Source of the DNA: Pseudomonas sp. S06B 330
GTDB lineage: Bacteria; Pseudomonadota; Gammaproteobacteria; Pseudomonadales; Pseudomonadaceae
Direction of reading: 5' to 3'
Length of the DNA: 64,000 bases
NCBI RefSeq assembly: GCF_002845275.2
Contig: NZ_CP088149.1
Coordinates: 2,910,501 to 2,974,500, forward strand
Shown here one piece after another: positions 9,033 to 41,916 of this stretch. The position numbers and the translations under genes were made by a program. Numbering within the stretch: the stretch's first letter is position 1; the number at the start of each line of letters is the position of its first letter. Under the pieces are notes generated by a model. That model saw only the letters and a program-made list of their open reading frames with translations, made no database searches and was not told where the DNA came from.

Positions 9033-10349
9033 ATGAACAACAACAAAGAACCAGAGACGCACCTTCAGCCACAGGCTATCGGTATGCCTCGCGTGTTGCG
9101 CGCACACCAGCCTGATCGAGAGGCTCGAGCTTTTCTGCGCCTGGCGAACTTCTCCACGAGTCTGCGACCTGCCGAAGACTACTCGCTGCCCAGGTTGCGC
9201 CAGGGCTGGCGCTTGACAGCGCTGGCTCTGGGGCGCAATCCGCAGGTGGCTTCGGTGACCGAACAACTGATCGACGGGCCGGATGGCGCAATCGCGTTAC
9301 GCATCTTCAAGCCTGACAATGCACAGGCGACGCGGCCTGCTTTCATGTGGTTTTTCGGCGGCGGCTTCATCATCGGTGATCTGGATACCGCTGACGGTAT
9401 TTGCCGCAGCATTGGCCTGGCGGCCAATTGCATCGTGATTGCCGTACGTTATCGTCTGGCGCCAGAGCATGATCTGTCTGCAGGCCGCGCCGACGCCATC
9501 ACGGCACTTGAGTGGGTGGCAGAAAATGGAGCGCAGTTAGGTATCGACACCACACTGCTGGCGATCGGCGGCGATTCGGCGGGTGGCAATCTCTGTGCTG
9601 CCGTTGCCCAGGAAAGCGTGCGCCGTGGCGGCCCTGCGCTGCGCCTGCAAGTGCTGGTGTACCCGGCAACCGAGCTGGTGGAGAAGTTTCCCTCCTATGC
9701 GCAGAATGCCTACGGTCGGACTTTGTTGACCGATCATGCCGTGCAATGGATCGAACAGACCCTGGCGCCTTCGCTCGCCACACTGGACCTGCTCGACCCC
9801 TGGTACTCGCCTCGGCGCAGCCCCGATATGCGTGGTCTGGCGCCGGCCGTTATCGTCAGTGCCGGTTTCGATCCGATCCGCGATGACGGGCTGGATTATG
9901 CCGCGCGTCTGCGCGCTGCCGAGGTGCCGGTAGAGCTGTTGCACTACCGGGGTCAATTTCATGGATTTCTCAATTTCGATTCCGTCAACGGCGCCAGCCG
10001 TGATGCCCTGCAACGCATCGGTGAGGCGCTGATCAGGGGGTTCGCCGGTCAGCCGGCGGCGGACAGGACGATCGAGATCGCCGACAGACAGCCACGCAAG
10101 CATTCGCGCCTGCGCGCCACCGTCGGTGAACTGGCGACTTCTACCTTGACTACCTGGGTGGTCACCGAGCGCTGGGGTGTCGCCTTGTTGCGCCTGCTGG
10201 CGCCAAAGACCGCCAGCGCCTGCCGACTGCTCATCAAACCTTTGCTCATACCCACCGTAACCATCCGGCGCAAAGCCATTTCCGGCCTTGACCGGCTGGC
10301 TGCACGTCAAACCTGGCCGACAGAAAAAAACTGCCCCATGAAACCTTGA
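9033..10349 (+). CDS. HSL-type alpha/beta hydrolase with C-terminal extension
   Basis: This 438-residue protein contains a hormone-sensitive-lipase family esterase domain. Nucleophile Ser182 lies in GGDSAGG, the acid is in SAGFDPIRDDG, and the His is in GQFHGF. The oxyanion HGGG motif reads FFGGGF (107-112), so its conserved His is replaced by Phe. After the domain there are about 100 extra residues rich in Arg and hydrophobics, not part of the family core. The ATG at 9033 has GGAG 5 bases upstream. As the first gene of the operon with the PHA synthase and racemase, it may release an acyl chain from an ester or CoA thioester; the substrate is unknown. Confidence 0.82.
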   Translation: MNNNKEPETHLQPQAIGMPRVLRAHQPDREARAFLRLANFSTSLRPAEDYSLPRLRQGWRLTALALGRNPQVASVTEQLIDGPDGAIALRIFKPDNAQATRPAFMWFFGGGFIIGDLDTADGICRSIGLAANCIVIAVRYRLAPEHDLSAGRADAITALEWVAENGAQLGIDTTLLAIGGDSAGGNLCAAVAQESVRRGGPALRLQVLVYPATELVEKFPSYAQNAYGRTLLTDHAVQWIEQTLAPSLATLDLLDPWYSPRRSPDMRGLAPAVIVSAGFDPIRDDGLDYAARLRAAEVPVELLHYRGQFHGFLNFDSVNGASRDALQRIGEALIRGFAGQPAADRTIEIADRQPRKHSRLRATVGELATSTLTTWVVTERWGVALLRLLAPKTASACRLLIKPLLIPTVTIRRKAISGLDRLAARQTWPTEKNCPMKP

Positions 10350-10363
10350 GCGAGGAATACGCC

Positions 10364-10768
10364 ATGGCATTACCTGATCCGTTGAAACTGTATCGCGAGG
10401 CTATTACCCGGTTCGAGAACGGCATCAATGCCCTGGCCGCCCGTCACATCGATGCCAAAGAGGTGGGTCGGGTGATTGACCAGTACACGAGCGTCTCGTT
10501 TGGCCTGCAGCACCTGTCGCAGACCTCGCTGCAGCGTTTGCACAAGGGCCTGGACTTGCCCAGCCGAGGAGAAGTAGACGCCCTTGCCGCTGCCTTGCGG
10601 CGTGTAGAGGACAAACTCGATCAATTGCTTCCAGTGTTCACCAGTGCGGCGGTTGCACCTAGCCCTCCGCGCACCCGGCGTCCGCTGGTTGAGGTGCAGG
10701 CGACGCCGCTCAAAGCGGCAACCAAACGTAAACGCAAGGCAGGAAATGACGATGACGCGACTGCATGA
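10364..10768 (+). CDS. Small phasin/PhaE-like protein
   Basis: The protein has 134 residues. The N-terminal 60 residues are a phasin-like amphipathic helix (LKLYREAITRFENGINALAA), followed by a predicted helix ending VEDKLDQLL. It closes with a Pro-rich linker and a Lys/Arg-rich tail (ATKRKRKAG) that resembles DNA- or granule-binding tails of phasins. GAGGAA lies 8 bases before this ATG. Its 3' end overlaps the PHA synthase gene by 17 bases. Class III and IV synthases need a partner subunit (PhaE or PhaR), and this is the obvious candidate, although it is much shorter than classical PhaE. The family assignment is tentative. Confidence 0.6.
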   Translation: MALPDPLKLYREAITRFENGINALAARHIDAKEVGRVIDQYTSVSFGLQHLSQTSLQRLHKGLDLPSRGEVDALAAALRRVEDKLDQLLPVFTSAAVAPSPPRTRRPLVEVQATPLKAATKRKRKAGNDDDATA

Positions 10769-11828
10769 CAACAAAGCGGTCGACTTTTCGTTGACTGACA
10801 GGCTGCGCACGGAAATCAGCATGATGGTTCAGCGTGGCCTCAAGGGGCTCGAGTACCTCAGCACGCCACCGCCAGCCGTTGGCATGACGCCCAAAACCCT
10901 GGTGCATCGTCGCGGTACTTTGTGCCTATACCACTATCATCCGACATCGGACGAAATTTACCGCGTGCCGCTGTTGTTCGTGATGGCGACGACCAGCAAA
11001 GCGGCGATCTTCGATCTGGTGAAGGGGCAGAGCCTGATCGAGTTTCTGCTTGCGCGCGGTTACGACGTCTATGTCATGGACTGGCATGCGCCGAGCCGCG
11101 AAGAGTCGCACCTGAAGCTTGAACACTACGTACTCGACTTCATTCCCGATTGCATTCGCCGGGTGCAACAACGATCCGGCGAGCAAGACGTCACCCTGAT
11201 TGGCTACTGCATGGGCGGTGTCCTGGCGACGCTGTACGCCGCATTGCACCCCGATGGCCCGCTGAAGAATCTGGTGTGTTTCACCACTCCGGTCGATTGG
11301 ACAAAGATGCCCCTGGCCAAACAGCGTCACTTCAAGGCCGAGCGCCTCATCGAAGCAAGCGGGCTGGTAGCGCCGCAGACCATCGTCAAGGCCATTGAAT
11401 TGCACCGTCCGGCCAGCCGCTTGGTCGGCAAGGCACGACTGTGGGACAACATGTGGAATGACGATTACGTCAGGGGATTTCGCGTGATGGCGCGGTTCAG
11501 TGATGAAACTTTACCGCTTCCCGGCGACTATTTCCGTCAGATTCATCAGGAGTTGGGGCAAAACAACGCGCTTTATGAAGGTGGCTTGCGTATCGGGGGG
11601 AGGGCAGTGGAACTGAAGAATATCGAAGTCTCGCTGCTGCACATCATCGCCCAATACGACTCGCTGGTGCCACCGGCGTGCGCGCAACCCTTGGTGGCTC
11701 GCGTGAATTCACCAGACAAGGAGGAGCTGCTGCTTGCGGGCGGCCATGTCAGCCTGGTGGCGGGGCCGGCGGCGGTCAAGCGGATGTGGCCTAAGCTTGA
11801 TCAATGGCTGGGCGCACGGTCCATGTAA
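10752..11828 (+). CDS. phaC: Class III-like polyhydroxyalkanoate synthase
   Basis: The protein is 358 residues from the ATG at 10752, which has AGGA about 7 bases upstream. The long open frame upstream is not used. The modified lipase box GYCMGG places the nucleophile at Cys153, with Asp303 in AQYDSLVPP and His332 in GGHVSL. These positions nearly coincide with the Cys149/Asp302/His331 triad known for the class III enzyme of Allochromatium vinosum, and the length matches that class rather than the approximately 560-residue class II enzymes of Pseudomonas. The predicted substrate is an (R)-3-hydroxyacyl-CoA. A CoA-transferring or hydrolytic role is the alternative. Confidence 0.82.
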   Translation: MTRLHDNKAVDFSLTDRLRTEISMMVQRGLKGLEYLSTPPPAVGMTPKTLVHRRGTLCLYHYHPTSDEIYRVPLLFVMATTSKAAIFDLVKGQSLIEFLLARGYDVYVMDWHAPSREESHLKLEHYVLDFIPDCIRRVQQRSGEQDVTLIGYCMGGVLATLYAALHPDGPLKNLVCFTTPVDWTKMPLAKQRHFKAERLIEASGLVAPQTIVKAIELHRPASRLVGKARLWDNMWNDDYVRGFRVMARFSDETLPLPGDYFRQIHQELGQNNALYEGGLRIGGRAVELKNIEVSLLHIIAQYDSLVPPACAQPLVARVNSPDKEELLLAGGHVSLVAGPAAVKRMWPKLDQWLGARSM

Positions 11829-11891: not shown

Positions 11892-13022
11892 ATGCCCGGA
11901 CCTCTGGCAGGTGTGAAAGTACTGGAAATGAACGCCATCGGCCCTGTGCCGTTTGCGGCAATGATGCTGGCAGACATGGGCGCGCAGGTCACCTGCGTGG
12001 ACCGTCACGTGCCGGGCTTTCTCAATGCCGATGGCAGTTTGCTCAAGCGCGGGCGACGTAGCATCGCCATCGACCCTCGCAAACCTGGCGCCGATGAAGT
12101 GCTGCTCAAGCTGATCGATGACGCTGACGTGTTGATTGAAGGGTTTCGGCCCGGCGTGATGGAGCGGCTGGGGCTGGGGCCGGACGTCTGCTTGCAGCGC
12201 AATCGCAAACTGATCTACGGGCGCATGACTGGTTGGGGCCAGAGCGGGCCGCTGGCCCATGCCGCGGGTCACGATATCAACTACATCGCCTTGTCGGGGC
12301 TGCTCAATGCCATGGGCCATGCCGACCGGCCGCCAACCCCACCCCTGCACCTGGTGGGTGACATGGGCGGCGGGGCGATGTTTCTCCTGACGGGCATTCT
12401 TGCGGCGCTGTTCGAGGCACAAAAATCCGGCCTGGGGCAAGTGGTGGACGCGGCTATATGTGACGGCACGACCCTGCTCGGCAGCATGTACTACGACCTG
12501 CGTCAGCAAGGCCAATGGACAGATCAGCGCCAGAGCAACATGCTCGACGGCGGTGCACCGTTCTATGGTTGCTACGCCTGCGCCGATGGCAAGTTGGTGA
12601 CGGTTGGTGCGATCGAGCCGCAGTTCTACCAACGGCTGCTCGAACTGTGCGAAATCGACGACCCGGACTTCACGGAGCAATGGCAGCGGCAAGCATGGCC
12701 TGCGTTGCGGGAAAAGCTCGCGGCCGTGTTTCTGTCGCGCTCGCGTGATGCCTGGGTGGCATTGCTGGAAGGCACGGATGCCTGTTTCGCCCCGGTGCTG
12801 GACTTCAACGAAGCACCTGAGCACCCGCACAACCAGGCCCGTGGCCTGTTCATGGAAACCGCAGGCGTGTTGCACCCGGCACCGGCGCCACGCCTGAGTC
12901 GCACGCCGGTCAAGGCCGGTGCCTTGGTGAAAAACGGCGAACACACCCTGGAAATCCTTGAGCAACTGGGCTTAAGCGCTGCGCAGATCGATGCCCTGCG
13001 CAAAGGTGGCGCGATTGTCTGA
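11892..13022 (+). CDS. Alpha-methylacyl-CoA racemase (family III CoA-transferase fold)
   Basis: This 376-residue CaiB/BaiF-fold protein aligns with alpha-methylacyl-CoA racemases rather than CoA-transferases. His127 (AGHDINY), Asp157 (VGDMGGGAM) and Glu242 (IEPQFY) fall one residue from the His126/Asp156/Glu241 active site known in the mycobacterial racemase. The enzyme would epimerise 2-methylacyl-CoA so that stereospecific dehydrogenases can act. It lies between the PHA synthase and an acyl-CoA dehydrogenase pair in one apparent operon. A paralogue is at 40810. Confidence 0.88.
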   Translation: MPGPLAGVKVLEMNAIGPVPFAAMMLADMGAQVTCVDRHVPGFLNADGSLLKRGRRSIAIDPRKPGADEVLLKLIDDADVLIEGFRPGVMERLGLGPDVCLQRNRKLIYGRMTGWGQSGPLAHAAGHDINYIALSGLLNAMGHADRPPTPPLHLVGDMGGGAMFLLTGILAALFEAQKSGLGQVVDAAICDGTTLLGSMYYDLRQQGQWTDQRQSNMLDGGAPFYGCYACADGKLVTVGAIEPQFYQRLLELCEIDDPDFTEQWQRQAWPALREKLAAVFLSRSRDAWVALLEGTDACFAPVLDFNEAPEHPHNQARGLFMETAGVLHPAPAPRLSRTPVKAGALVKNGEHTLEILEQLGLSAAQIDALRKGGAIV

Positions 13023-13159: not shown

Positions 13160-14353
13160 GTGGATATCCAATTCACCCCTGCCGAGTTGGCCTTCCGAGA
13201 GGAAGTCAGGGCGTTTTTGCGTGACAGATTGCCTACCGATATCGCCGCGCGCGGTCGCCATGGCAAGCGTTTCAACAAAGAGGACCAGGTCACCTGGATG
13301 CGTCTGCTCAATGAACGCGGATGGCTGGCGGCCAGTTGGCCGGTAGCGTTTGGCGGTACTGGCTGGGGCGCGGTGGAGAAACACATTTTCGAGGAAGAGT
13401 GTGCGGCGTTCGGCGCTCCCTGGGTCGTGCCGTTTGGGGTCAACATGGTCGCCCCGGTGATCATCAAGTTTGGCACCCCCGAACAACAGGCGCGTTTTCT
13501 GCCGCGCATTCTCAGCAGCGAAGACTGGTGGTGCCAGGGTTATTCCGAGCCGGGCGCCGGTTCTGATCTGGCCGCGATCAAGACCCGCGCAGTTCGTGAA
13601 GGTGATCACTACGTGGTCAACGGCCAGAAGACCTGGACCACCTTGGCGCATTATGCCGACTGGATTTTCTGCCTGGTGCGCACCGACCCCGAAGCGCAAC
13701 AGCAGCGTGGCATCAGCTTTCTGCTGATCGACATGAAAACCCCGGGCATCACGGTGCGCCCGATCATCACCCTCGATGGTGAGCATGAAGTCAACGAAGT
13801 GTTCTTCGACAACGTGCGCGTGCCGGTGGACAACCTGGTCGGTGAAGAGAACAAGGGCTGGACCTGCGCCAAGTATTTGCTGACCCACGAACGCACGAGC
13901 ATTGCCGGAATCGGCCAGGCCAAGCAGATGCTCGCCCGGCTCAAACACATTGCCAGCCAGGAGCAGTGCGACGGCCTGCCCTTGATCGATGACATCCAGT
14001 TGCGCATGCAAATCGTCGAGCTGGAGATCCAGTTAATGGCTATTGAAATGAGCAACTTGCGCATTGTCGCCGCCGCCCGCGATGGCGGTGTTCCGGGCAC
14101 TGAAAGCTCGTTTCTGAAGATAAAGGGCAGTGAAATCCGCCAGGCCATCACCTACCTGATGAGTAAAACCCTGGGCCCCTACGCCATGCCGTACGTCGAA
14201 GAAGAACTGGGCTATGTCAAACAAGCGGATGTGTACCGCGACTACAGCACCACGCCGGCCAGCCAATACCTGGATATGCGCAAGACTTCGGTGTACGGCG
14301 GTTCCAACGAAATCCAGAAGAACATCATCGCCAAGATGATTCTTGAGCTGTAA
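13160..14353 (+). CDS. Acyl-CoA dehydrogenase, alpha-like subunit of a pair
   Basis: The 397-residue protein starts at GTG with GAGGAG 8 bases upstream. FAD/substrate motifs include WWCQGYSEPGAGSDLA and VVNGQKTWTT. The C-terminus has VYGGSNEIQKNIIAKMIL, so the Glu found at the YEGT position of classical enzymes is Gly. The next gene is a second, divergent dehydrogenase 14 bases away. Adjacent unequal FadE pairs are known to form alpha2-beta2 heterotetramers in steroid and other bulky acyl-CoA degradation, and I infer the same here. Confidence 0.85.
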   Translation: MDIQFTPAELAFREEVRAFLRDRLPTDIAARGRHGKRFNKEDQVTWMRLLNERGWLAASWPVAFGGTGWGAVEKHIFEEECAAFGAPWVVPFGVNMVAPVIIKFGTPEQQARFLPRILSSEDWWCQGYSEPGAGSDLAAIKTRAVREGDHYVVNGQKTWTTLAHYADWIFCLVRTDPEAQQQRGISFLLIDMKTPGITVRPIITLDGEHEVNEVFFDNVRVPVDNLVGEENKGWTCAKYLLTHERTSIAGIGQAKQMLARLKHIASQEQCDGLPLIDDIQLRMQIVELEIQLMAIEMSNLRIVAAARDGGVPGTESSFLKIKGSEIRQAITYLMSKTLGPYAMPYVEEELGYVKQADVYRDYSTTPASQYLDMRKTSVYGGSNEIQKNIIAKMILEL

Positions 14354-15561: not shown

Positions 15562-15897
15562 CGGGAAAATTTCCCGTCATGGGGCGGTCCGTGTATCGCA
15601 CCGGGGACACGTTCGTTGATCTGCGTCCAAGGGTGAGATCGCTCGGCGTTACTCCACCTGCAGCCCCTCATCGCTTATTCAACAATCCCCCCCTATTTCC
15701 CCCTCCAGCGGGTGGGAGTGATGACCGGCCCGGCTCTTAGGATCGAACCGCTCTAATCAAAAACTACAAGAAAACACCGAGGAAGACCTGCACGTGAATA
15801 TCGCCATCAGCGCGACCTTCAGTTCGCTTCTGCTGCCTTTGCGCTTTGTAGCAGAAGCCCGCTCGCGTCGTACTTTTTCGCACAATTGGAGTGCCGC
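15562..15897 (+). promoter_or_regulatory. Promoter region of the DUF1302/DUF1329 operon
   Basis: This gap of about 335 bp contains no credible gene. At 15687-15716 it carries CCCCCCC, then CCCCC and a GGGTGGG tract, about 180 bp before the DUF1302 start. The element resembles those upstream of the other operons in this block. No clear -35/-10 pair could be assigned by eye. Confidence 0.4.
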
Positions 15898-17709
15898 ATG
15901 AGAACAACAATAAAACAGGCCGGCTTTCGCACCCATCTGCTGACAGCTGCAGTTGCCATTGGCATGAGCACCCAGGCTTACGCCGTCAATTTCACGATTG
16001 GCGAAATCGAAGGGCAATTCGATACATCGCTGTCCATGGGCGCCAGCTGGGCGCTGCGCGGGGCCGACCCTGATTTCATTTCCCCGTTTAACGCGCAAGG
16101 TGTGCGGGGTAATTCGTCGTCGCGGCTGTCGGACGATAACCGCCTGAACTTCAAGAAGGGTGAAACCTTCTCGAAGATATTCAAGGGCATTCATGACCTG
16201 GAACTGAAATATGGCGACAGCGGTATCTTTGTGCGCGGCAAATACTGGTACGACTTCGAACTGAAGGATGAACACCGGCTGTTCTACGACATCGACGACC
16301 GCGGCCGCCAGGACATGGCCAAGGCGTCCGCTGCCGAATTCCTCGATGCCTTCGTTTACCACAACTACACCCTCGGCGAGCTGCCGGGTAACGTACGTGT
16401 GGGCAAGCAGGTGGTGAGCTGGGGCGAAAGCACCTTTATTGGCAACAGTATCAACTCGATCAACCCGATCGATGTGGCCGCCTTGCGTCGCCCAGGGGCG
16501 GAGGTCAAGGAAGGGCTGATCCCGGTCAACATGTTCTACCTGTCGCAGAACATCACTGAGAACGTCAGTGCCGAAGCCTTTTATCAGTTGGAGTGGGAAA
16601 GCACAGTCGTTGATAACTGCGGAACTTTCTTCGGCGCCGATCCTCTGGCCAAAGGGTGCTACGACCGTCAAGTGGGCGCCGGGCCGGATCTGGCACCGGG
16701 GCTCTCTGAGAACACGGCCAATCCGCCCGGTTTCAACAACAACACTGACAACGCCTACACCCCGCGGGTGAAGGACAACGAGGCCCGTGACGGCGGCCAG
16801 TACGGCCTGGCCCTGCGCTGGTTTGTGCCAGAGCTCCACGACACCGAGTTCGGTGCCTACGTGATGAACTATCACAGCCGCAGCCCGTATCTGAGCACCT
16901 TGCGTTCAACCGTGGCGTTCAACGCTGCCAACCCGATCCCGGCGCTGCGCGCTTCGCGCTATTTCGTCGATTACCCCGAAGACATCCGCCTGTATGGCCT
17001 GAGCTTCCAGACCAACGTTGGTGGCACCTCGCTGGGGGGTGAGATCAGTTACCGGCCAAACATGCCCCTGCAGCTCAACAACACCGACCTGGCGGGTGCC
17101 ACCACGGGTAACCCCTCCGCGCTGTTGAACCGTATTGGCTATGCCACCACCGCCTTGGGCGGCGAGATCAACGGTTACAAGCGCATGCCGGTGCTGCAGA
17201 CGCAGGTGTCCGCTACCCAGTTTTTCGAGCAGGTCATGGGCGCCAGTCGTCTGACCCTGGTGGGGGAGGTGGGCTACAACCGCATCAATGGGCTGGGCGA
17301 GGCCGATGGCAGTGATGTGCGCTTTGGGCGCAGCGGGATTTTTGGCGTCGGGGTGCAACCTGGACGGGCCAACGCCGCGTGTTTGAACACCGTCAATAAC
17401 CCGCAACAGGAATGCAACGACAAGGGCTTCTATACCACCGATTCCTGGGGGTACCGCGCCCGTGCCCGTTTGGACTACCCGAATGTGATCGCCGGCATCA
17501 ACCTGGCGCCGAACCTGGCGTGGTCGCATGACGTGGATGGCAATGGCCCGAACTTCGAGGAAGGGCTCAAGGCCATTAGCCTCGGTGTGGATGCCGATTA
17601 CACGAACACCTACACCGCGAGCCTTAGCTACACCGATTTCTTTGGTGGCGATTTCAATACCAACGGTGACCGTGACTTCGTCGCGCTCAGTTTTGGCGTG
17701 AACTTCTAA
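15898..17709 (+). CDS. DUF1302 family outer-membrane protein
   Basis: The protein has 603 residues, starting at the ATG with GGAG 6 bases upstream. A signal peptide ends near QAYA. The mature protein has alternating-aromatic beta-strands, opening with FDTSLSMGASWAL and the characteristic RLSDDNRLNF and VGKQVVSWGES segments, and ends in an aromatic strand (FVALSFGVNF) typical of outer-membrane barrels. DUF1302 proteins are usually encoded beside DUF1329 partners in clusters degrading hydrophobic compounds, so a role in uptake of the lipophilic substrate is inferred. Transport has not been shown by anything in the sequence. Confidence 0.88.
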   Translation: MRTTIKQAGFRTHLLTAAVAIGMSTQAYAVNFTIGEIEGQFDTSLSMGASWALRGADPDFISPFNAQGVRGNSSSRLSDDNRLNFKKGETFSKIFKGIHDLELKYGDSGIFVRGKYWYDFELKDEHRLFYDIDDRGRQDMAKASAAEFLDAFVYHNYTLGELPGNVRVGKQVVSWGESTFIGNSINSINPIDVAALRRPGAEVKEGLIPVNMFYLSQNITENVSAEAFYQLEWESTVVDNCGTFFGADPLAKGCYDRQVGAGPDLAPGLSENTANPPGFNNNTDNAYTPRVKDNEARDGGQYGLALRWFVPELHDTEFGAYVMNYHSRSPYLSTLRSTVAFNAANPIPALRASRYFVDYPEDIRLYGLSFQTNVGGTSLGGEISYRPNMPLQLNNTDLAGATTGNPSALLNRIGYATTALGGEINGYKRMPVLQTQVSATQFFEQVMGASRLTLVGEVGYNRINGLGEADGSDVRFGRSGIFGVGVQPGRANAACLNTVNNPQQECNDKGFYTTDSWGYRARARLDYPNVIAGINLAPNLAWSHDVDGNGPNFEEGLKAISLGVDADYTNTYTASLSYTDFFGGDFNTNGDRDFVALSFGVNF

Positions 17710-29769: not shown

Positions 29770-30957
29770 TCAGTTCTTGCCAAACAGCGTGACGACGCAG
29801 GCGCCACCCAGGCCAAGGTTGTGTTGCAGGGCGATCTGCACACCGTCCACCTGGCGCTTGTCGGCTGTGCCGCGCAGCTGATGGGTCAGCTCGTAACATT
29901 GGGCAAGGCCGGTTGCACCCAATGGATGGCCCTTGGAAAGCAGGCCGCCGGACGGGTTGGTCACCACTTGCCCACCGTAGGTGTTGTCGCCATCACGAAT
30001 AAAGCGTTCGGCACCGCCGACCGGGCAAAAGCCCAGGGCTTCATAGGTCAGCAGTTCGTTGTGGGCGAAGCAGTCGTGCAGCTCAACCACGCGGATGTCT
30101 TCAGGACCGATGCCGGCTTGTTCGTAGACTTGGCTGGCGGCAGCCTGGGCCATGTGAAAGCCGGCGAAGCTGATCATCGAAGGCGGATCGAAAGACTCCA
30201 CCACGTCGGTGGTCATCGACTGGGCAAGAATCGCCACGTCGGTGCGCAGCCCATGCTTTCTGGCAAAGGCTTCACTGCAAACGATCGCCGCAGCGCCCCC
30301 GCAGGTCGGCGGGCAGGCCATCAAGCGGGTCATGACGCCGGGCCAGATGAGCTTGTCGTTCAATACCTCTTCGCTGCTCACCACGTTCTTGAACAACGCC
30401 AACGGGTTATTGGCAGCGTGACGGCTGGCCTTGGCACGGATCATCGCAAAGGCTTCCATGCTGGTGCCGTAACGTTGCATGTGCTCGCGACCCGCGCCGC
30501 CGAAACCACGCAGGGCTTGCGGTACATCCGCAGCATCTGCGGTGAGCGACTCCAGTACGTGCATGAAGCGTGCACGTGGGCGTGGGCGGTCATCCCAGTG
30601 CGAGCGCAGCGCGCCGGCCTGCATCTGCTCGAATCCCAGGGCCAGGGCGCAATCAACCTGGCCGCTGGCCACGGCGGCACGGGCCAGATACAGGGCCGTC
30701 GACCCGGTAGAGCAGTTGTTGTTGACGTTGACCACCGGAATACCGGTCAGGCCCACCTCGTACAGGGCAGTCTGGCCGCTGGTGGAATCACCGAACACGT
30801 AACCGGTGAAGGCCATCTGGATTTTGTCGTAGCCAAGGCCGGCGTCTTTCAGCGCCAGGCGCAAGGCCTCTGCGCCCATTTCGGTATAGCTTGGGCTTGC
30901 GCCCGGCTTGCTGAAGGGGATCATGCCGACGCCGGCAACGATAACTTTTTCGCTCAT
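29770..30957 (-). CDS. SCP-x type thiolase 2
   Basis: The protein has 395 residues, with Cys82 in NNNCSTGS, ELHDCFAHNE and GHPLGATG. It is co-linear with thiolase 1 over its whole length, with long identical blocks in the middle and at the C-terminus; they differ mainly around residues 115-150. It lies second in the minus-strand operon after a dehydrogenase. Family role: thiolytic cleavage of 2-methyl or bulky 3-ketoacyl-CoA, releasing propionyl- or acetyl-CoA. Two copies may serve successive cycles or different chain shapes. Confidence 0.88.
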   Translation of the reverse strand: MSEKVIVAGVGMIPFSKPGASPSYTEMGAEALRLALKDAGLGYDKIQMAFTGYVFGDSTSGQTALYEVGLTGIPVVNVNNNCSTGSTALYLARAAVASGQVDCALALGFEQMQAGALRSHWDDRPRPRARFMHVLESLTADAADVPQALRGFGGAGREHMQRYGTSMEAFAMIRAKASRHAANNPLALFKNVVSSEEVLNDKLIWPGVMTRLMACPPTCGGAAAIVCSEAFARKHGLRTDVAILAQSMTTDVVESFDPPSMISFAGFHMAQAAASQVYEQAGIGPEDIRVVELHDCFAHNELLTYEALGFCPVGGAERFIRDGDNTYGGQVVTNPSGGLLSKGHPLGATGLAQCYELTHQLRGTADKRQVDGVQIALQHNLGLGGACVVTLFGKN

Positions 30958-34144: not shown

Positions 34145-34174
34145 GCGCGGGATGAATGTCCCGTGCAAGCTTTT
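34145..34174 (+). terminator. Weak terminator or attenuator before aldehyde dehydrogenase
   Basis: GCGCGGGA and TCCCGTGC form an 8-bp stem (one G-U) around TGAATG, followed four bases later by TTTT. It lies between the propeller gene and the aldehyde dehydrogenase, so it may reduce rather than stop read-through. Confidence 0.55.
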
Positions 34175-34213
34175 AGGGGCGCAACGACCCACAAAAACAA
34201 GGTAAACCCTGCA

Positions 34214-35626
34214 ATGAACATGATTGAATTACCCGAAGTAGTGCGCCTGCGCGAGATCCTTGCCAGGCAGCGTTCGGCTTATCTGTCGAAGCCTGTCTGG
34301 AGCGCCGAGCAGCGCTGCGAATTGTTTGACCGCCTGATCGGCATGCTGGTGGACAACAAGCAGGAAATCGTGGAAGCGACGGCGGCCGACTTCGGTCACC
34401 GCAGCCATGACCTCACGCGCATCATTGATCTGCTCGGCCCGCTATCGTCGCTGAAGAAAACCCGGGCCCGAATTGCCGACTGGATGAAACCCGAACAGCG
34501 TGCTGTCGATCGCGGCGCGGCGTGGATCCAGTACCAGCCATTGGGTGTGGTGGGCATCGTCACGGCCTGGAATTTTCCCGTGGGTATGGTTATCCAGGGG
34601 CTGGCCAGTGCGCTGTCAGCCGGCAACCGGGCGATGGTCAAAGTTTCTGAGTTGAACCCTTCGTGTGCCGAGCTGATGCAACGGATGTTCAGCGCCACCT
34701 TCGCCGAAGACGAGATCGCTATCGTGACCGGTGGCCCTGAGGTCGGCCAGGCGTTCTGCAGCCTGCCTTTCGACCACCTGCTGTTCACCGGGGCCAGCAG
34801 TGTTGGCAAGCATGTGATGCGTGCGGCGGCCGAGAACCTGGTACCGGTAACCCTGGAGCTGGGCGGGAAGTCGCCCACCATCGTCTCGCGCTCTGCCGAC
34901 TTGAAGGTCGCGGCGAGCAAGATCATGGCCGGCAAGCTTTTGAATGCCGGTCAGGTCTGCCTGGCGCCGGATCATGTATTCGTTCCCGAGGAGTCGCTGG
35001 AGGATTTCATTGCCCACGTCAAAGTGGCGGTCGCCAAGCTCTACCCGAGCCTCAAGGACAATCCGGATTACACCTCAGTAATCAATGCCCGCCACCATGA
35101 ACGGCTGCTGGGGTACCTCGCCGAGGCCCGGGCGGCGGGTGTTGAGTTGATCGAGCTGAACCCCGCTGCGGAGGATTTTCGCGACCAGCCCCATCACAAA
35201 ATGGTGCCGACCCTGCTGTGTAATCCCGGAGATGAACTGAAGGTTATGCAGGATGAGATCTTCGGCCCGTTGTTGCCGATCAAACCTTACAAGGATATGC
35301 AGGAGGTGGTTGCCTATGTCAACGCTCATCCGCGTCCGCTGGGGCTTTACTATTTTGGCAGCGATGCGGCGGAAGAACAGTTTGTCCTTGAACGTACGGT
35401 GTCGGGTGGGGTGACGATCAATAACGTGGCGCTGCATGCCAGTGTCGACAGCCTGCCTTTTGGCGGGGTCGGCAACAGTGGCATGGGCAGCTATCTCGGT
35501 CACCAGGGCTTTGTCACCTTCAGTCATCCTAAGCCGGTATTGCGCGCGGCAGAGGGGCCGGACATTACCCGACCACCCTTCACCGAGCAGGTACGGCAGA
35601 TGGTTGATGCGATGATCAAACGCTAG
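34214..35626 (+). CDS. Coniferyl-aldehyde-dehydrogenase-like NAD(P)+ aldehyde dehydrogenase
   Basis: This is a 470-residue short aldehyde dehydrogenase. TAWNFPVGMV is the cofactor entry, LELGGKSP carries the general-base Glu and NAGQVCLAPDHVFV the catalytic Cys. The PFGGVGNSGMG and C-terminal hydrophobic segment (TFSHPKPVL) match the coniferyl aldehyde or fatty aldehyde dehydrogenase group. AAGGTAA lies about 9 bases before the chosen ATG. It would oxidise a long or aromatic aldehyde to the acid used by the ligase. Many members act on broad hydrophobic aldehydes, so coniferyl specificity is not claimed. Confidence 0.85.
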   Translation: MNMIELPEVVRLREILARQRSAYLSKPVWSAEQRCELFDRLIGMLVDNKQEIVEATAADFGHRSHDLTRIIDLLGPLSSLKKTRARIADWMKPEQRAVDRGAAWIQYQPLGVVGIVTAWNFPVGMVIQGLASALSAGNRAMVKVSELNPSCAELMQRMFSATFAEDEIAIVTGGPEVGQAFCSLPFDHLLFTGASSVGKHVMRAAAENLVPVTLELGGKSPTIVSRSADLKVAASKIMAGKLLNAGQVCLAPDHVFVPEESLEDFIAHVKVAVAKLYPSLKDNPDYTSVINARHHERLLGYLAEARAAGVELIELNPAAEDFRDQPHHKMVPTLLCNPGDELKVMQDEIFGPLLPIKPYKDMQEVVAYVNAHPRPLGLYYFGSDAAEEQFVLERTVSGGVTINNVALHASVDSLPFGGVGNSGMGSYLGHQGFVTFSHPKPVLRAAEGPDITRPPFTEQVRQMVDAMIKR

Positions 35627-36349: not shown

Positions 36350-37138
36350 TCAAGTACCGGTGAATTGAGGAATGCGACGCTCACGCATCGCCTTGTTGCC
36401 CTCGGCAAAGTCGCGGGTGAGGACCTGCCACTCTTGCTCGCTGGCCTCGCGATCAATGATCGCATCCACTGCGTCGGCAAGGCCAGCACGTAACGTTTGG
36501 CGGCTCGACATGACAGCAAGAGGGGCACTGATGGCGATTTCCTCAGCCAGGGCGCGAGCTGCCTGACGTTCTTCACCCGGCTCGGCAAGAATATCCGCCA
36601 GGCCGATGCGTACCGCGTGTGCGCCATCGATACGCCGGCCGGTGGCGATCAACAGGGAGGCCATTTGCAGGCCGACGACGCGCGGCAGGGTAACAGAAAT
36701 GCCAAAACCCTGGTGCATGCCCAAGCGGTTGAAGTTGGCCGAGAAACGGGCCTTCTCGCTGGTCACCCGATAGTCGCCCACCAGCGCCAGGCCCAGGCCG
36801 CCACCGATGGCGGCGCCTTCTACCACAACGATCAGTGGCTTGGCCGTGCGCAACAGGCCTACGGCGTGTTTGTACAGCTGGCGGGGCAGAACTTTCTCCC
36901 CGCTCTGCGCCAATCCATTGAAGTCAGCGCCCGCACAGAACGTCTTGCCTTCGGCCTGCAGGATGACCACCCGGCATGCCGGTAGCTGATCCAGATACGC
37001 CAGCGCCGCCAGCAGATCAATGATCAGTTCCTGATCAAAGAAGTTCAGGGGTGGGCGGCTGAACTCGAGGGTGGCAATAGGCCCTTGCAGTTCAAGGGTC
37101 AAGCCACGGCCGGGAGTGAAGGGGGCGAGGGTTGTCAT
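36350..37138 (-). CDS. Enoyl-CoA hydratase/isomerase (crotonase family)
   Basis: The protein has 262 residues. The crotonase oxyanion-hole segments are KTFCAGADFNGL and GAAIGGGLGLALVGDYRV. The Glu commonly found after the second segment (FxxPE) is replaced here (NFNRLGMHQGFG), so the reaction may be isomerisation, hydrolysis or C-C cleavage rather than standard hydration. It forms an operon with the downstream TetR gene and diverges from the second dehydrogenase pair. Since MaoC hydratases are already present, a distinct step on the substrate is plausible. Confidence 0.82.
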   Translation of the reverse strand: MTTLAPFTPGRGLTLELQGPIATLEFSRPPLNFFDQELIIDLLAALAYLDQLPACRVVILQAEGKTFCAGADFNGLAQSGEKVLPRQLYKHAVGLLRTAKPLIVVVEGAAIGGGLGLALVGDYRVTSEKARFSANFNRLGMHQGFGISVTLPRVVGLQMASLLIATGRRIDGAHAVRIGLADILAEPGEERQAARALAEEIAISAPLAVMSSRQTLRAGLADAVDAIIDREASEQEWQVLTRDFAEGNKAMRERRIPQFTGT

Positions 37139-37281: not shown

Positions 37282-38424
37282 ATGCAGGCACTCGATATCA
37301 GGCCTTGTAGGCTGGACGCCAAGACGCAAACGCTGCGCGCCGAGGTCCGTGCTTTTCTTGCCGAAGAGCTCAAACACTATTCACCGGCTGAACGTGCCAA
37401 AGGGCTTGTCGGCCTGGTGCCGCAGTTCACCCGCAAACTCGGTGAGCGTGGCTGGCTGGGCATGACCTGGCCCAAGCGCTACGGCGGGCAGGAACGTAGT
37501 GCGCTGGAGCGCTATGTGGTGCTCGAAGAGTTGCTCGCGGCAGGCGCGCCAGTGGGCGCGCATTGGGTCGCCGAGCGTCAGAGTGGTCCGCTACTGATCA
37601 AGTTTTCTGCGCAGGTATTGGCCCCGCAGATCGTTCCGGGCATCACCCGTGGCGAAACTCTGCTGGCGATCGGCATGAGCGAGCCTGATGTCGGCTCCGA
37701 CCTGGCAGCCGTGCGCACTCGTGCGGAAAAAACCGAGGGTGGCTGGATCGTCAACGGCAGCAAAGTGTGGACCTCCGGAGCGCACCTGGCGCACTACATG
37801 ATCACGCTGCTGCGCACCGGGCCGAAGGAGGAGGGCAATCGCCGCGCCGGGCTGTCGCAGCTGCTGATTGACCTCAAGGCGCCGGGCGTGACCATACGGC
37901 CGATTTACAACATGCTCGGCGAGCATGATTTCAACGAAGTGTTTTTGGATAACGTCTTTGTTGCCGACGATTACGTCATTGGCCAGGTAGGTAATGGCTG
38001 GCAACAGGTCACCGCAGAACTGGCGTTGGAGCGCAGTGGCCCGGAGCGCTACCTGAGCAGCACCCAGTTGTACCTGGCAATGCTCGACGAGGCCGACCCG
38101 CAAGACAGTCGCCATGCGGTCAGCCTTGGTCGTCTGGCGGCACGTTATGCGGCGCTGCGGCAGATGTCGCTGGGCATCGCCGGAATGCTCGCCCGTGGCG
38201 AGAATCCGGCGATTCCGGCGACGGTGGTCAAGGACCAGGGGGCGCTGCTTGAACAGGCCATTCCGGACGTCGCTCACGATCTGTTCGGCGATCAGCGAGA
38301 GCCCGGTTCCGATCTCGACCAGGTGATGCGATTCCTGACCCAGAGCGCGCCGTCCTTCTCGCTGCGAGGCGGTACGCGTGAAATTCTACGCGGCATTATT
38401 GCTGGGGGGCTGGGACTGCGATGA
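37282..38424 (+). CDS. Acyl-CoA dehydrogenase, alpha-like subunit of second pair
   Basis: The protein has 380 residues. ERGWLGMTWPKRYGG, GMSEPDVGSDLAAVRT and IVNGSKVWTSGAH are the FAD and substrate segments, and the C-terminus reads LRGGTREILRGIIAGGLGL. As in the first pair, the Y/F-E-G-T catalytic Glu position is Gly, and the next gene overlaps by four bases (ATGA). A heteromeric dehydrogenase for a bulky or branched acyl-CoA is inferred. It starts the TetR-controlled operon, although the ribosome-binding site (GAGCAG) is weak. Confidence 0.85.
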   Translation: MQALDIRPCRLDAKTQTLRAEVRAFLAEELKHYSPAERAKGLVGLVPQFTRKLGERGWLGMTWPKRYGGQERSALERYVVLEELLAAGAPVGAHWVAERQSGPLLIKFSAQVLAPQIVPGITRGETLLAIGMSEPDVGSDLAAVRTRAEKTEGGWIVNGSKVWTSGAHLAHYMITLLRTGPKEEGNRRAGLSQLLIDLKAPGVTIRPIYNMLGEHDFNEVFLDNVFVADDYVIGQVGNGWQQVTAELALERSGPERYLSSTQLYLAMLDEADPQDSRHAVSLGRLAARYAALRQMSLGIAGMLARGENPAIPATVVKDQGALLEQAIPDVAHDLFGDQREPGSDLDQVMRFLTQSAPSFSLRGGTREILRGIIAGGLGLR

Positions 38425-39625: not shown

Positions 39626-40711
39626 ATGAAAGCTGCCGTATTCCACACCCCAGGCTCCCCGCTGGTCATCGAAGAAGTCGGAATCAGCAAACCCGGCCCG
39701 CGTGAAGTGTTGGTGCGCACCGTCGCCGTCGGCGTCTGTCATTCGGACCTGCATGTTGTCGACGGCATGTATCCGCATCCAGCCCCTGTGGTGCTGGGCC
39801 ACGAGGCTGCCGGTATCGTCGAGCAAGTGGGCTCGGACGTGCGTACGGTCAAGCCTGGCGATCACGTGGTTACCTGTCTGTCGGTCTATTGTGGCCATTG
39901 TGCCCATTGCGTCACCGGCCACCTGTCATTGTGCGTGTCAGCAGAAACCCGCCGCGCCAAGGGTGACGAACCACGCCTGACCTACGTGCAAAAGCCGATG
40001 CCGCAATTTGCCAACCTGTCCGCCTATGCCGAACAGATGCTGGTGCATGAGCATGCGCTGGTTGCCATTCGCCGTGACATGCCGCTTGACCGCGCCGCCT
40101 TGCTCGGTTGCGCGGTCACCACCGGGACCGGTGCGGTTTTCAACAGTGCCAACGTGCGCCCCGGGGAGACCGTGGCTGTTCTGGGGTGCGGCGGCATTGG
40201 CCTGGCGGCGATCAACGGTGCGGCACTGGCTGGGGCGGGCCGGATCATCGCCATCGACATGCTCGACTCGAAGCTGGAGCTGGCCCGGCAGTTTGGTGCC
40301 ACCGATGTGATCAACGCCAAAGATGGCGATACCGTACAACAGGTGATAGAACTGAGCAGAGGCGGGGTCGATCACTCGTTCGAATGCATCGGCCTCAAGC
40401 AAACCGCCGAGCAGGCCTTCGGCATGCTCAAGCGCGGTGGTTGCGCCACGATCATCGGCATGATGAAACCGGGCACCAAACTTGAGCTCGACCCGTTCCA
40501 GCTTCTGCAAGCACGGCGCATTCAAGGGTCGATCATGGGCGCTAACCGCTTCCCGGTGGACCTGCCACGCCTGACCGATTTCTACATGCAGGGGCGCCTC
40601 AAACTCGACGAGATGATTTCGCAGCGCATCAAACTTGAAGACATCAATGTTGCCTTCGACGAAATGCGCCGTGGCGAGCTCGCCCGTTCGGTGATTGTCT
40701 TCGATCAGTGA
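39626..40711 (+). CDS. Zinc-dependent alcohol dehydrogenase (class III-like MDR)
   Basis: This is a 361-residue medium-chain dehydrogenase. Catalytic zinc ligands are Cys38 (GVCHSD) and His59-Glu60 (LGHEAAG). The structural zinc loop has the four-Cys pattern CLSVYCGHCAHCVTGHLSLC, and the cofactor site GCGGIGLAAINGA is followed by AIDMLDSK (Asp, NAD preference). It would oxidise an alcohol group on the substrate or an intermediate. It sits in the same operon as the second dehydrogenase pair and racemase 2, after an 83-base gap. Confidence 0.87.
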   Translation: MKAAVFHTPGSPLVIEEVGISKPGPREVLVRTVAVGVCHSDLHVVDGMYPHPAPVVLGHEAAGIVEQVGSDVRTVKPGDHVVTCLSVYCGHCAHCVTGHLSLCVSAETRRAKGDEPRLTYVQKPMPQFANLSAYAEQMLVHEHALVAIRRDMPLDRAALLGCAVTTGTGAVFNSANVRPGETVAVLGCGGIGLAAINGAALAGAGRIIAIDMLDSKLELARQFGATDVINAKDGDTVQQVIELSRGGVDHSFECIGLKQTAEQAFGMLKRGGCATIIGMMKPGTKLELDPFQLLQARRIQGSIMGANRFPVDLPRLTDFYMQGRLKLDEMISQRIKLEDINVAFDEMRRGELARSVIVFDQ

Positions 40712-40727: not shown

Positions 40728-40774
40728 CGAGTAGGGCATGGCATACCCGTGCGGTGTTGGCCTGGCCCTACTCG
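40728..40774. other. Inverted repeat before racemase 2
   Basis: CGAGTAGGGC (40728-40737) and GCCCTACTCG (40765-40774) are perfect 10-bp arms around a 27-base centre that includes ACCCGTGCGGTG. It lies between the alcohol dehydrogenase stop and racemase 2 start. There is no T-run, so it may be an mRNA stabiliser, attenuator or operator. Confidence 0.55.
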
Positions 40775-40809
40775 GCAAACACACCACTGAACGAGGCAAG
40801 AGAATAGGC

Positions 40810-41916
40810 ATGTTAGCTGACATCAAGATTGTAGAAATCTGTGGCATCGGGCCCGGACCGTTCTGCGCCATGCATCTGGCAGATCTGGGCGCCCAGGTCA
40901 TCGCCGTTGAGCGCGGCGAAGCGTCTTCTGCCACAGGCCAGAGTGCGGCGAAAAACGCGATGAATCGGGGCAAACGCTCGGTGATTGCCGACCTGAAAAC
41001 ACCCGAGGGGCGCGCGGCCGTGCTCAAGCTGATCGAAAGCGCAGACGCGTTGATCGAAGGTATGCGTCCTGGGGTGATGGAACGGCTGGGTCTGGGCCCA
41101 GAGGTGCTCCTGGCGCGCAACCCGAAGCTGGTCTACGGGCGTATGACCGGTTGGGGCCAGGATGGCCCGTTGGCCAAGGCGGCAGGCCACGACAACAACT
41201 ACATTTCCCTGTCTGGGGCGCTGTACTACTGCGGTACCGAGGGCCAAGCGCCATCTTCGCCGATAACCATGATCGGCGACATTGGCGGTGGGGCGCTTTA
41301 TCTTGCGGTCGGGCTGCTGGCCGGGATCCTCAATGCGCGCACGACCGGCAAAGGCACTGTGGTCGATGCGGCCATCGTCGACGGCTCGGCGCACATGATG
41401 CAGCTGTTGATGTCGATGGCGTCACGTGGCGCAATTCTAGAGCAGCGCGGCAAGAGTATGCACGATGGCTCGCATTTCTACGCCACGTACCGCTGTGCCG
41501 ATGGCCATTACATTTCCTTGGGGGCGATGGAGCCACAGTTTTATGCGTTGCTGCTGGAAAAGTTGGACCTCAGTGAAGACGCCCGCTTCGTACGGCAATG
41601 GGACACGGATCGCTGGAGCGAACAGCGCGCGGCATTCGAGAGCATCTTTGGCAGCCGTACCCGTGCGCAGTGGTGCGAGCTGTTCGAAGGTACAGACGTG
41701 TGTTTCGCGCCGGTGCTCAGCCCGCGTGAATCTTCCGAGCATCCGCATATGACCGCGCGAGACGTGTACTTCAGGCGCGACGGCATGTTACAGGCTCACC
41801 CTGCACCACGCTTCGACGGTCAAGTGCTGACTCCGAGGGCAACGCCCACCCGCGGCGAACATACAGAACACGTCTTAGCGGCGCTTGATGCCGATAGCGA
41901 AGGTCTTTGGTCATGA
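40810..41916 (+). CDS. Alpha-methylacyl-CoA racemase 2 (family III CoA-transferase fold)
   Basis: The protein has 368 residues from the ATG at 40810. It aligns colinearly with the racemase at 11892, with His127 (AGHDNNY), Asp157 (IGDIGGGAL) and Glu241 (MEPQFY) all kept, so it is a second alpha-methylacyl-CoA racemase and not a CoA-transferase. It is the last gene of the TetR-controlled operon. Two racemases suggest that the substrate carries more than one methyl stereocentre, or that two chain types are used. Confidence 0.87.
   Translation: MLADIKIVEICGIGPGPFCAMHLADLGAQVIAVERGEASSATGQSAAKNAMNRGKRSVIADLKTPEGRAAVLKLIESADALIEGMRPGVMERLGLGPEVLLARNPKLVYGRMTGWGQDGPLAKAAGHDNNYISLSGALYYCGTEGQAPSSPITMIGDIGGGALYLAVGLLAGILNARTTGKGTVVDAAIVDGSAHMMQLLMSMASRGAILEQRGKSMHDGSHFYATYRCADGHYISLGAMEPQFYALLLEKLDLSEDARFVRQWDTDRWSEQRAAFESIFGSRTRAQWCELFEGTDVCFAPVLSPRESSEHPHMTARDVYFRRDGMLQAHPAPRFDGQVLTPRATPTRGEHTEHVLAALDADSEGLWS

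What the first reader, a model, noticed from the sequence alone, without database searches (positions are those of the whole stretch)
9033..41916. 33-kb cluster resembling a bacterial version of peroxisomal branched-chain beta-oxidation
The block holds an acyl-CoA ligase, two alpha-methylacyl-CoA racemases, five acyl-CoA dehydrogenases, R-specific type (MaoC) hydratases, an SDR dehydrogenase and two SCP-x thiolases. These are the same steps that peroxisomes use for pristanoyl and bile-acid side chains (racemase, branched dehydrogenase, multifunctional enzyme 2, SCP-x). Exported DUF1302/DUF1329 proteins and ADH/ALDH genes suggest a hydrophobic alcohol or aldehyde as the external substrate. No steroid-ring, geranyl-CoA carboxylase or phytanoyl hydroxylase gene is present, so the substrate is open.
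Basis: partly seen in the sequence, partly recalled or inferred. Interest (0 to 1): 0.75.

Follow-up and report, generated by a model that had tools for sequence, protein, structure and literature searches.

The report
Pseudomonas cluster for methyl-branched chains
A 25-gene cluster in a Pseudomonas encodes, step for step, the kind of enzymes that peroxisomes use to shorten methyl-branched chains, together with a relative of a bioplastic-making enzyme, and most strains found to carry it also carry genes for taking steroids apart.

Summary
Window 9018-41916 holds 25 genes: two AMACR/MCR-type racemases with all three catalytic residues, two thiolases closest to a solved SCP2-thiolase type 1, an SDR closest to a solved (3R)-hydroxyacyl-CoA dehydrogenase, two MaoC proteins, five acyl-CoA dehydrogenases, ligase, ADH, ALDH and more. 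The order recurs in full in two named Pseudomonas, nearly so in a third genome, and at both ends in three more.

"No steroid-ring gene" holds only for the window: the chromosome carries a steroid-ring cluster about 74-142 kb upstream, with a Sal/Shy-like bile-acid pair, and a paralogous cluster in between. In 398 genomes of the genus, 10 of 12 close carriers have an HsaC-type ring gene against 58 of 386 others. Two single-contig carriers lack ring genes, so the module can stand alone.

Best reading: thiolytic beta-oxidation of a hydrophobic 2-methyl-branched chain, often but not only a steroid side chain. Substrate unproven. A new variant of a known kind.

The parts
9018..10349 (+). HSL-family esterase/lipase (443 aa, GDSAGG box)
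   Evidence: Abhydrolase_3 206 bits; LipP1 286 bits, below its cut-off 350; motif
10346..10768 (+). 140-aa protein between esterase and PhaC-like gene; possible PhaE/phasin-like companion
   Evidence: No Pfam; TIGR01837 PHA granule protein at E=0.026 only; next to a PhaC-like gene in all ten loci (the window's own, eight relatives at 64-80%, and L221 at 53% where no esterase match was seen)
10644..11828 (+). PHA-synthase-like (class III type) protein with Cys in the lipase box (GYCMGG); real start probably about 10743
   Evidence: TIGR01836 256 bits, cut-off 365; first five of 7 PDB matches are PHA synthases/polymerases
11892..13022 (+). alpha-methylacyl-CoA racemase 1
   Evidence: MCR 374 bits, His/Asp/Glu kept
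13160..14353 (+). acyl-CoA dehydrogenase alpha 1 (pimC-like)
   Evidence: best PDB 4x28, 206 bits
14368..15510 (+). acyl-CoA dehydrogenase beta 1 (pimD-like partner)
   Evidence: TIGR03203 354 bits, cut-off 652.7
15886..17709 (+). DUF1302 protein, probably outer membrane
   Evidence: Pfam 563 bits; the P. putida relative PP_0765 is a predicted barrel (PMC10866462 passages)
17736..19103 (+). DUF1329 partner
   Evidence: Pfam 514 bits
19151..21859 (-). MalT-type LuxR regulator 1
   Evidence: TPR_MalT + GerE
22220..23416 (+). SCP-x type-1 thiolase 1
   Evidence: PRK08256 671 bits, over cut-off 436; 6hsj 438 bits
23539..26274 (+). MalT-type LuxR regulator 2
   Evidence: TPR_MalT + GerE
26330..27931 (-). 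acyl-CoA ligase
   Evidence: AMP-binding 289 bits
28023..28853 (-). SDR 3-hydroxyacyl-CoA dehydrogenase (MFE-2 type)
   Evidence: best PDB 2et6 (3R)-hydroxyacyl-CoA dehydrogenase 221 bits
28887..29303 (-). MaoC hydratase subunit with DHNPIH motif
   Evidence: Pfam 65 bits; HadB-type best PDB, 54 bits; motif
29313..29843 (-). MaoC N-type partner (FAS1_DH_region); start probably about 29750
   Evidence: Pfam 158 bits
29770..30957 (-). SCP-x type-1 thiolase 2
   Evidence: PRK08256 673 bits; 6hsj 428 bits
30988..32265 (-). acyl-CoA dehydrogenase 3; start probably about 32130
   Evidence: 2pg0 404 bits; mitochondrial long-chain acyl-CoA dehydrogenase 8w0t 365 bits
32420..34135 (+). exported beta-propeller protein of unknown function
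   Evidence: no Pfam; AlphaFold2 pLDDT 89.7; propeller matches
34163..35626 (+). aldehyde dehydrogenase
   Evidence: Aldedh 275 bits
35692..36627 (-). TetR regulator (ORF over-extended)
   Evidence: TetR_N at residues 124-169
36350..37138 (-). crotonase-type enoyl-CoA hydratase
   Evidence: ECH_1 148 bits; EchA19 best NCBIfam, 152 bits, cut-off 400
37282..38424 (+). acyl-CoA dehydrogenase alpha 2
   Evidence: best PDB Tcur3483, 131 bits
38421..39542 (+). acyl-CoA dehydrogenase beta 2 (IpdE2-like)
   Evidence: NF050027 68 bits, cut-off 450
39626..40711 (+). zinc alcohol dehydrogenase
   Evidence: ADH_zinc_N 106 bits
40738..41916 (+). alpha-methylacyl-CoA racemase 2
   Evidence: MCR 322 bits, His/Asp/Glu kept

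Best explanation
The block is a regulated catabolic module that takes up a hydrophobic ester or alcohol ending in a 2-methyl-branched (isoprenoid-type) chain and shortens that chain by thiolytic beta-oxidation of the peroxisomal kind. Proposed order: uptake through DUF1302/DUF1329; ester cleavage by the HSL-type esterase; alcohol to acid by ADH and ALDH; CoA ligation; racemisation of the 2-methyl centre (two racemases); desaturation by the dehydrogenases; hydration by the MaoC pair; oxidation by the MFE-2-type SDR; cleavage by SCP-x thiolase to propionyl-CoA. Shown: enzyme families, catalytic motifs, gene order and its conservation. Inferred: the order of steps, the stereochemistry, induction and the substrate. 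The most likely substrate in this strain is a C27-type steroid side chain or a similar isoprenoid chain that arrives already oxidised or esterified. I put the module reading at about 0.75-0.8 and steroid side chain as the main substrate at about 0.4-0.45; the confidence below is for the module reading.
For: Racemases: MCR is top for both, with His, Asp and Glu at MCR positions 126, 156 and 241 (residue roles from PMC12246613 passages). Thiolases: SCP2-thiolase type 1 is top for both, with the motifs NNNC, HDCF and GHPLGATG. SDR: (3R)-hydroxyacyl-CoA dehydrogenase 2et6 is top. Ligase, SDR, MaoC, MaoCN, thiolase and ACAD3 run on one strand with gaps of 9-91 bp, using my trimmed starts: a complete turn of beta-oxidation in one run of genes. 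Much of the set recurs on Cupriavidus metallidurans CH34 and Caballeronia insecticola replicons (racemase, MaoC pair, SDR, SCP-x, ACAD3, MalT2-like regulator, propeller; in Caballeronia the propeller match covers 47% of the query). Steroid link: ring cluster on the same chromosome; in the genus 10 of 12 close carriers vs 58 of 386 others have HsaC at E <= 1e-60, Fisher p = 6e-7, or 3e-6 without the window's own genome.
Against: No expression or growth data. G614 and G695 have no HsaC at 1e-60 and P. schmalbachii has only a 35% hit; all three lack IpdA and KshA_C matches, so steroid rings are not required. The genome has no P450 match, so a CYP125-type C26 hydroxylation of an unoxidised sterol is not available. 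The Fisher tests do not correct for relatedness. Ring genes are common without a close carrier match (58 of 386, of which 12 are among 28 genomes with a weaker second-pair match), and all four HsaC-positive non-carriers tested have IpdA too. The ring cluster has its own Sal/Shy-like pair, so bile acids need not use this module.
Confidence: 0.75

Rival explanations
1. The module degrades non-steroid 2-alkyl-branched compounds such as pristanic-type isoprenoids, 2-ethylhexanol-type alcohols or their esters (wax esters, plasticisers); its link with steroid genes reflects general lipid scavenging.
For: G614 holds the cluster except for the window's own DUF1302/DUF1329 type, and G695 holds most of the paralogous version (its left end was cut by the stretch taken), both single-contig genomes without ring-gene matches. 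Esterase, ADH and ALDH are part of the set. A GMC oxidoreductase sits next to the propeller gene in C. metallidurans and next to a 32% propeller relative on a Sphingomonas plasmid. P. putida PP_0765/PP_0766 (DUF1302/DUF1329) are needed for Tween 20 use (PMC10866462 passages).
Against: Strong co-occurrence with an HsaC-type gene in the genus. The alpha subunit 13160-14353 is closest among solved structures to 4x28, which I recall as the M. tuberculosis cholesterol dehydrogenase ChsE4-ChsE5.
Confidence: 0.4
2. The cluster is simply another bile-acid side-chain system, equivalent to Scd/Shy/Sal.
For: Bile-acid degradation is known in P. putida DOC21 and P. stutzeri Chol1 (PMC6678751 and PMC8399759 passages); same chromosome as ring genes.
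Against: The window thiolases keep the Cys motif that Sal1 is said to lack; a Sal-like protein with a YDCY motif and a Shy-like protein (zf-ChsH2 + OB_ChsH2_C + MaoC) are encoded in the ring cluster instead. A C5 bile-acid chain has no alpha-methyl at its acyl end, so a racemase would be idle in the first cycle (inference).
Confidence: 0.1
3. The CoA_transf_3 proteins are CoA-transferases acting on linear acids, and the cluster handles ordinary fatty acids.
For: Family III CoA-transferases share the Pfam family.
Against: MCR outscores the best transferase by 374 to 127 and 322 to 130 bits; the His and Glu positions are kept.
Confidence: 0.05

Closest known systems
Peroxisomal beta-oxidation of pristanoyl-CoA and C27 bile-acid intermediates (AMACR, branched oxidase, MFE-2, SCPx; pathway recalled)
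   Same: Racemase, MaoC hydratase plus MFE-2-type SDR, and SCP-x type-1 thiolase; top solved relatives of thiolases and SDR are SCP2-thiolase type 1 and (3R)-hydroxyacyl-CoA dehydrogenase
   Different: Dehydrogenases, not oxidases; hydratase, dehydrogenase and thiolase are separate genes; no SCP2 domain in the 398- and 395-aa thiolases; linked uptake, esterase and PHA-synthase-like genes
Proteobacterial bile-acid side-chain degradation (Scd, Shy, Sal, Sad)
   Same: Paired acyl-CoA dehydrogenases, MaoC-type hydration, same chromosome as the ring cluster
   Different: Sal cleaves by retro-aldol and lacks the N-terminal thiolase Cys (passages); the strain has a separate Sal/Shy-like pair
Actinobacterial cholesterol side-chain degradation (CYP125, MCR, ChsE4-E5, FadA5; gene names partly recalled)
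   Same: MCR-type racemase and a dehydrogenase subunit closest to 4x28
   Different: No P450 match in the genome; SCP-x thiolases instead of FadA5 (24-30 bits only)
Class III PHA synthase (PhaC-PhaE)
   Same: PhaC-like protein with Cys lipase box next to a small companion gene
   Different: Below the TIGR01836 cut-off (256 vs 365 bits); companion only at E=0.026 to a PHA granule family

Membership tests
AMACR/MCR racemases | residues at MCR His126, Asp156 and Glu241 | tested here: met
   AGHD, GD(M/I)GGG and A(I/M)EPQF aligned to MCR in both proteins; roles from PMC12246613 passages
AMACR/MCR racemases | alpha-proton exchange activity | not testable with these tools
   needs an enzyme assay
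SCP2/SCP-x type-1 thiolase | nucleophilic Cys and HDCF / GHPLGATG motifs, closest to type-1 sequences | tested here: met
SCP-x full-length protein | C-terminal SCP2 lipid-binding domain | tested here: not met
   398 and 395 aa; only thiolase-type and ketoacyl-synt Pfam matches
MFE-2 | (3R)-hydroxyacyl-CoA dehydrogenase-type SDR and hydratase-2 motif | tested here: met
   2et6 top; DHNPIH in MaoC (motif meaning recalled)
MFE-2 | single fused polypeptide | tested here: not met
   separate genes 28023-28853, 28887-29303, 29313-29843
MFE-2 | R stereospecificity | not testable with these tools
   needs an assay
Sal steroid aldolase | loss of the N-terminal thiolase Cys, with a Tyr/Cys pair in its place | tested here: not met
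   window thiolases keep NNNC and HDCF; the Sal-like protein is at chromosome 2783561 instead
CYP125-type cholesterol catabolism | P450 C26 hydroxylase | tested here: not met
   0 PF00067 matches in the genome; the same search rang in 7 of 14 control genomes
Atu/Liu acyclic terpene pathway | geranyl-CoA carboxylase in the cluster | tested here: not met
   no carboxylase domain in any of the 25 cluster proteins; the rest of the genome was not searched for one
Class III PHA synthase | score over the TIGR01836 cut-off | tested here: not met
   256 vs 365 bits
Class III PHA synthase | Cys nucleophile in the lipase box | tested here: met
   GYCMGG, aligned to a PHA synthase GYCIGG
Class III PHA synthase | PhaE partner | tested here: inconclusive
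   140-aa neighbour, TIGR01837 E=0.026
9,10-seco steroid ring cluster (own chromosome, outside the window) | KshA | tested here: met
   KshA_C 221 bits, cut-off 23.3, plus Rieske
9,10-seco steroid ring cluster (own chromosome, outside the window) | HsaA, HsaC, HsaD and IpdA-type genes over curated cut-offs | tested here: inconclusive
   HsaA 367, HsaC 277 and HsaD 183 bits are best matches but below cut-offs 450, 450 and 400; BphD scores 182 against HsaD's 183; IpdA-type protein is CoA_trans 115 bits; KstD was not sought

The most novel reading that the evidence does not exclude
The cluster is a natural dual-use module: it degrades 2-methyl-branched chains and, when carbon is in excess, its linked PhaC-like synthase polymerises (R)-2-methyl-3-hydroxyacyl-CoA made by the racemase, dehydrogenase and MaoC hydratase into alpha-methylated polyhydroxyalkanoate, with the HSL-type esterase remobilising it.
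Probability: 0.1. Interest if true: 0.75.

Novelty: new variant of a known kind. Interest (0 to 1): 0.5.

Why it matters
Racemase-dependent beta-oxidation of methyl-branched chains is best known from peroxisomes and actinobacteria (recalled). Here a full set sits as a compact block in several Pseudomonas, and much of it in at least two Burkholderiales, with uptake genes, an uncharacterised exported propeller family and, in cluster A, a PHA-synthase-like gene. It offers a genetically tractable, P450-free system in which the substrate question can be settled by growth and deletion tests, and it suggests how Pseudomonas could clear sterol-type or isoprenoid side chains.

Tried and rejected
Considered and dropped: an Atu/Liu terpene pathway (no carboxylase in the cluster); CYP125-type sterol oxidation (no P450 match); the cluster as the Sal/Shy bile-acid system; the opposite-strand ORFs 33053-34192 and 32405-33031 as genes (no Pfam match, and they lie over the propeller ORF). 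The 2-ethylhexanol idea was checked in PMC10134610 (passages), which has no mention of a racemase, so it stays only as part of a rival. The racemase-1 relative in Variovorax SRS16 (58%) lies in a different gene context. The propeller model matches BamB, YxaL, Rv3035 and designed propellers at similar Z (23-28 in the 50 rows shown), so it gives a fold but no function. A class-level draw with the propeller found only the window's own genome (1 of 219, E <= 1e-40), so its spread could not be mapped that way. Literature: in the listings I saw no title or abstract start that describes this cluster, and one search returned nothing; only open-licence papers are held, and several listings were capped (25 of 76, 12 of 38, 15 of 112, 12 of 703). 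Papers seen as passages only: PMC6678751, PMC10866462, PMC10134610, PMC8399759, PMC11061730, PMC12246613, PMC12329534, PMC9989198; PMC11321319 as an abstract start in a listing. The founding DOC21 papers were not read.
Full report
What is there. Window 9018-41916 carries 25 genes. From the left on the plus strand: HSL-type esterase, a 140-aa protein, a PHA-synthase-like protein, racemase 1, a pair of acyl-CoA dehydrogenases, DUF1302 and DUF1329. Then a MalT-type LuxR (minus), an SCP-x thiolase and a second MalT-type LuxR (plus). Then, on the minus strand, ligase, SDR, MaoC, MaoC-N, SCP-x thiolase and ACAD3, with gaps of 9-91 bp if the long ORFs are trimmed as I propose. Then an exported propeller protein and ALDH (plus), TetR and crotonase (minus), and finally a second dehydrogenase pair, ADH and racemase 2 (plus).

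Are the enzymes what they seem? Both CoA_transf_3 proteins match alpha-methylacyl-CoA racemase MCR far better than any CoA-transferase (374 vs 127 bits, 322 vs 130 bits) and keep the residues at MCR His126, Asp156 and Glu241; the roles of these residues come from passages of PMC12246613. Both thiolases have SCP2-thiolase type 1 (6hsj, recalled as zebrafish) as top solved relative (438 and 428 bits) and keep NNNC, HDCF and GHPLGATG, while FadA5 scores 24-30 bits. The SDR's top solved relative is the (3R)-hydroxyacyl-CoA dehydrogenase 2et6, which I recall as yeast peroxisomal MFE-2 (221 bits; next 164). ACAD3 is closest to 2pg0 and then mitochondrial long-chain acyl-CoA dehydrogenase (404 and 365 bits). 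The two dehydrogenase alpha subunits are closest to 4x28 and Tcur3483, which I recall as steroid dehydrogenases; the second match is modest (131 bits). MaoC has the DHNPIH motif and best matches HadB-type dehydratases and an R-specific enoyl-CoA hydratase, at about 51-54 bits.

Genome context. The window is chromosome 2910501-2974500 of a 5.64-Mb single-contig genome, a Pseudomonas judged from its nearest named relatives. The cluster starts at chromosome 2919518. About 74-142 kb upstream (2777755-2845357) lies a steroid-ring cluster: KshA (KshA_C 221 bits); HsaA, HsaC and HsaD models as best matches but below their cut-offs, HsaD almost tied with BphD; a 4-hydroxy-2-oxovalerate aldolase over its cut-off and a hydratase below it; two CoA-transferase subunits; IpdC- and IpdE-like genes named by eye. 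It includes a thiolase-fold protein without the NNNC motif and with YDCY, next to a zf-ChsH2/OB/MaoC protein. That is the Sal/Shy arrangement as described in passages of PMC12329534 and PMC8399759 and in the listed abstract of PMC11321319. Between the two lies cluster B (2853545-2897680), a paralogue with one racemase: most genes are 53-88% identical to the window's, MalT1 27-30%, dehydrogenase 3 47-50%, and an extra crotonase 33%. A smaller third version, without a racemase, MaoC or SDR match, is at 3.296-3.314 Mb. The genome has nine DUF1302 matches and no P450 match.

Conservation. Cluster A is in the same order in P. putida ASAD and P. putida 17522 (ASAD has an extra SDR-like gene after racemase 1). 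In Pseudomonas sp. PB101, P. vranovensis DSM 16006 and P. fluorescens PS862 both ends were seen, on contigs of matching length; the middle with the MalT regulators and thiolase 1 was not looked at. A second version, with an alpha subunit 74-80% identical and varied neighbours, is in 11 further Pseudomonas loci (L065-L075). Racemase, ACAD3, SCP-x, MaoC pair, SDR, a MalT2-like regulator and propeller are together on Cupriavidus metallidurans CH34 and Caballeronia insecticola replicons (the Caballeronia propeller match covers 47% of the query). In 30 more distant, mostly betaproteobacterial loci (62-67% identity; L076-L104, L139) the second dehydrogenase pair was seen with a crotonase in 25 and a TetR-like gene in 16, at 38% identity or more and within the flanks held.

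Link to steroids. In 398 genomes of the genus, 12 have a close second-pair alpha subunit (717 bits or more; the next is 482). Of these 10 have HsaC at E <= 1e-60, against 58 of the 386 others (Fisher p = 6e-7, or 3e-6 without the window's own genome). With only HsaC of 67% identity or more the count is 6 of 12 against 34 of 386 (p = 4e-4). The 28 genomes with only a weaker match (398-482 bits), counted above among the others, have HsaC in 12; their gene neighbourhoods were not examined. In a 390-genome order sample, 18 of 33 genomes with the alpha subunit and 78 of 357 without it have an HsaC-type match. IpdA was found in 25 of 28 handles. Four of the 28 were HsaC-positive non-carriers, all positive; the 24 carrier handles are 21 distinct genomes by identical coordinates, 18 of them positive. 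KshA_C was found in 15 of 18 carriers. In seven single-contig genomes with both loci the distance is 63 (nearer of two HsaC copies; the other 233), 122, 133, 285, 571, 1289 and 1520 kb, closer than uniform (p = 0.013 with the window's own genome, 0.046 without). Against this: G614 and G695, both single-contig, and P. schmalbachii lack IpdA and KshA_C matches, and have no HsaC at 1e-60 or only a 35% hit. None of these tests corrects for shared ancestry.

Reading. The cleanest reading is a self-contained module for thiolytic shortening of 2-methyl-branched acyl chains. It is distinct from the strain's Sal/Shy-like bile-acid route and often found in the same genome as ring genes. With no P450, an unoxidised sterol chain could not enter by the CYP125 route, so a pre-oxidised or esterified chain, or a non-steroid branched compound, is more likely. 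A sulfatase gene follows racemase 2 in ASAD (Pfam) and, by eye, in G614, which would fit sulfated alcohols; this is a lead only.

What is not settled. The substrate; which racemase and dehydrogenase set acts in which cycle; the role of the propeller protein (pLDDT 89.7; more than 1000 relatives, 120 listed, those with a name called hypothetical or uncharacterised); and whether the PhaC-like protein makes polymer. The esterase/140-aa/PhaC-like trio precedes racemase 1 in all seven cluster-A genomes. It also occurs apart from the cluster, including a second copy in this genome at 5.23 Mb, so the link is real but not exclusive.

Noticed in passing
window 3780-7695: Three-subunit molybdenum hydroxylase (2Fe-2S, FAD, MoCo subunits) upstream of the cluster; no link to it was looked for.
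   Followed up: no
window 42032-47747: Amino acid permease, a 195-aa protein without Pfam match, ADH, ALDH and a LuxR regulator directly after racemase 2; no match of 38% or more to them in the flanks of the five named relatives.
   Followed up: partly
window 47842-53153: Putative esterase, TonB-dependent receptor and a two-component pair on the minus strand, resembling a siderophore uptake group (by eye).
   Followed up: no
own chromosome 3295910-3313812 (L028): Third paralogous cluster with dehydrogenase pair, ADH, ALDH, DUF1302/1329, SCP-x, ACAD3, two ligases, a crotonase-like and a MalT-type LuxR gene, without racemase, MaoC or SDR matches.
   Followed up: partly
L061:14692-16278; G614:C1 from about 3179061: A sulfatase gene next to racemase 2 in two cluster-A genomes (Pfam for L061; by eye for G614).
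   Followed up: partly
L061:16570-20516, L063:14825-16198: Two similar integrase-like genes and a transposase-like gene (by eye) beyond racemase 2, suggesting a mobile right edge.
   Followed up: no
own chromosome 2893837-2894142 (L017): Short IS3-type transposase-like ORF (by eye) inside cluster B, between a thiolase and the propeller gene.
   Followed up: no
plasmids NZ_CP081910.1, NZ_EU818711.1 and others: 31% relatives of the exported propeller protein are encoded on ten plasmid records of Bacteroides, Parabacteroides, Phocaeicola and an uncultured bacterium, nine of them about 9-13 kb long.
   Followed up: no
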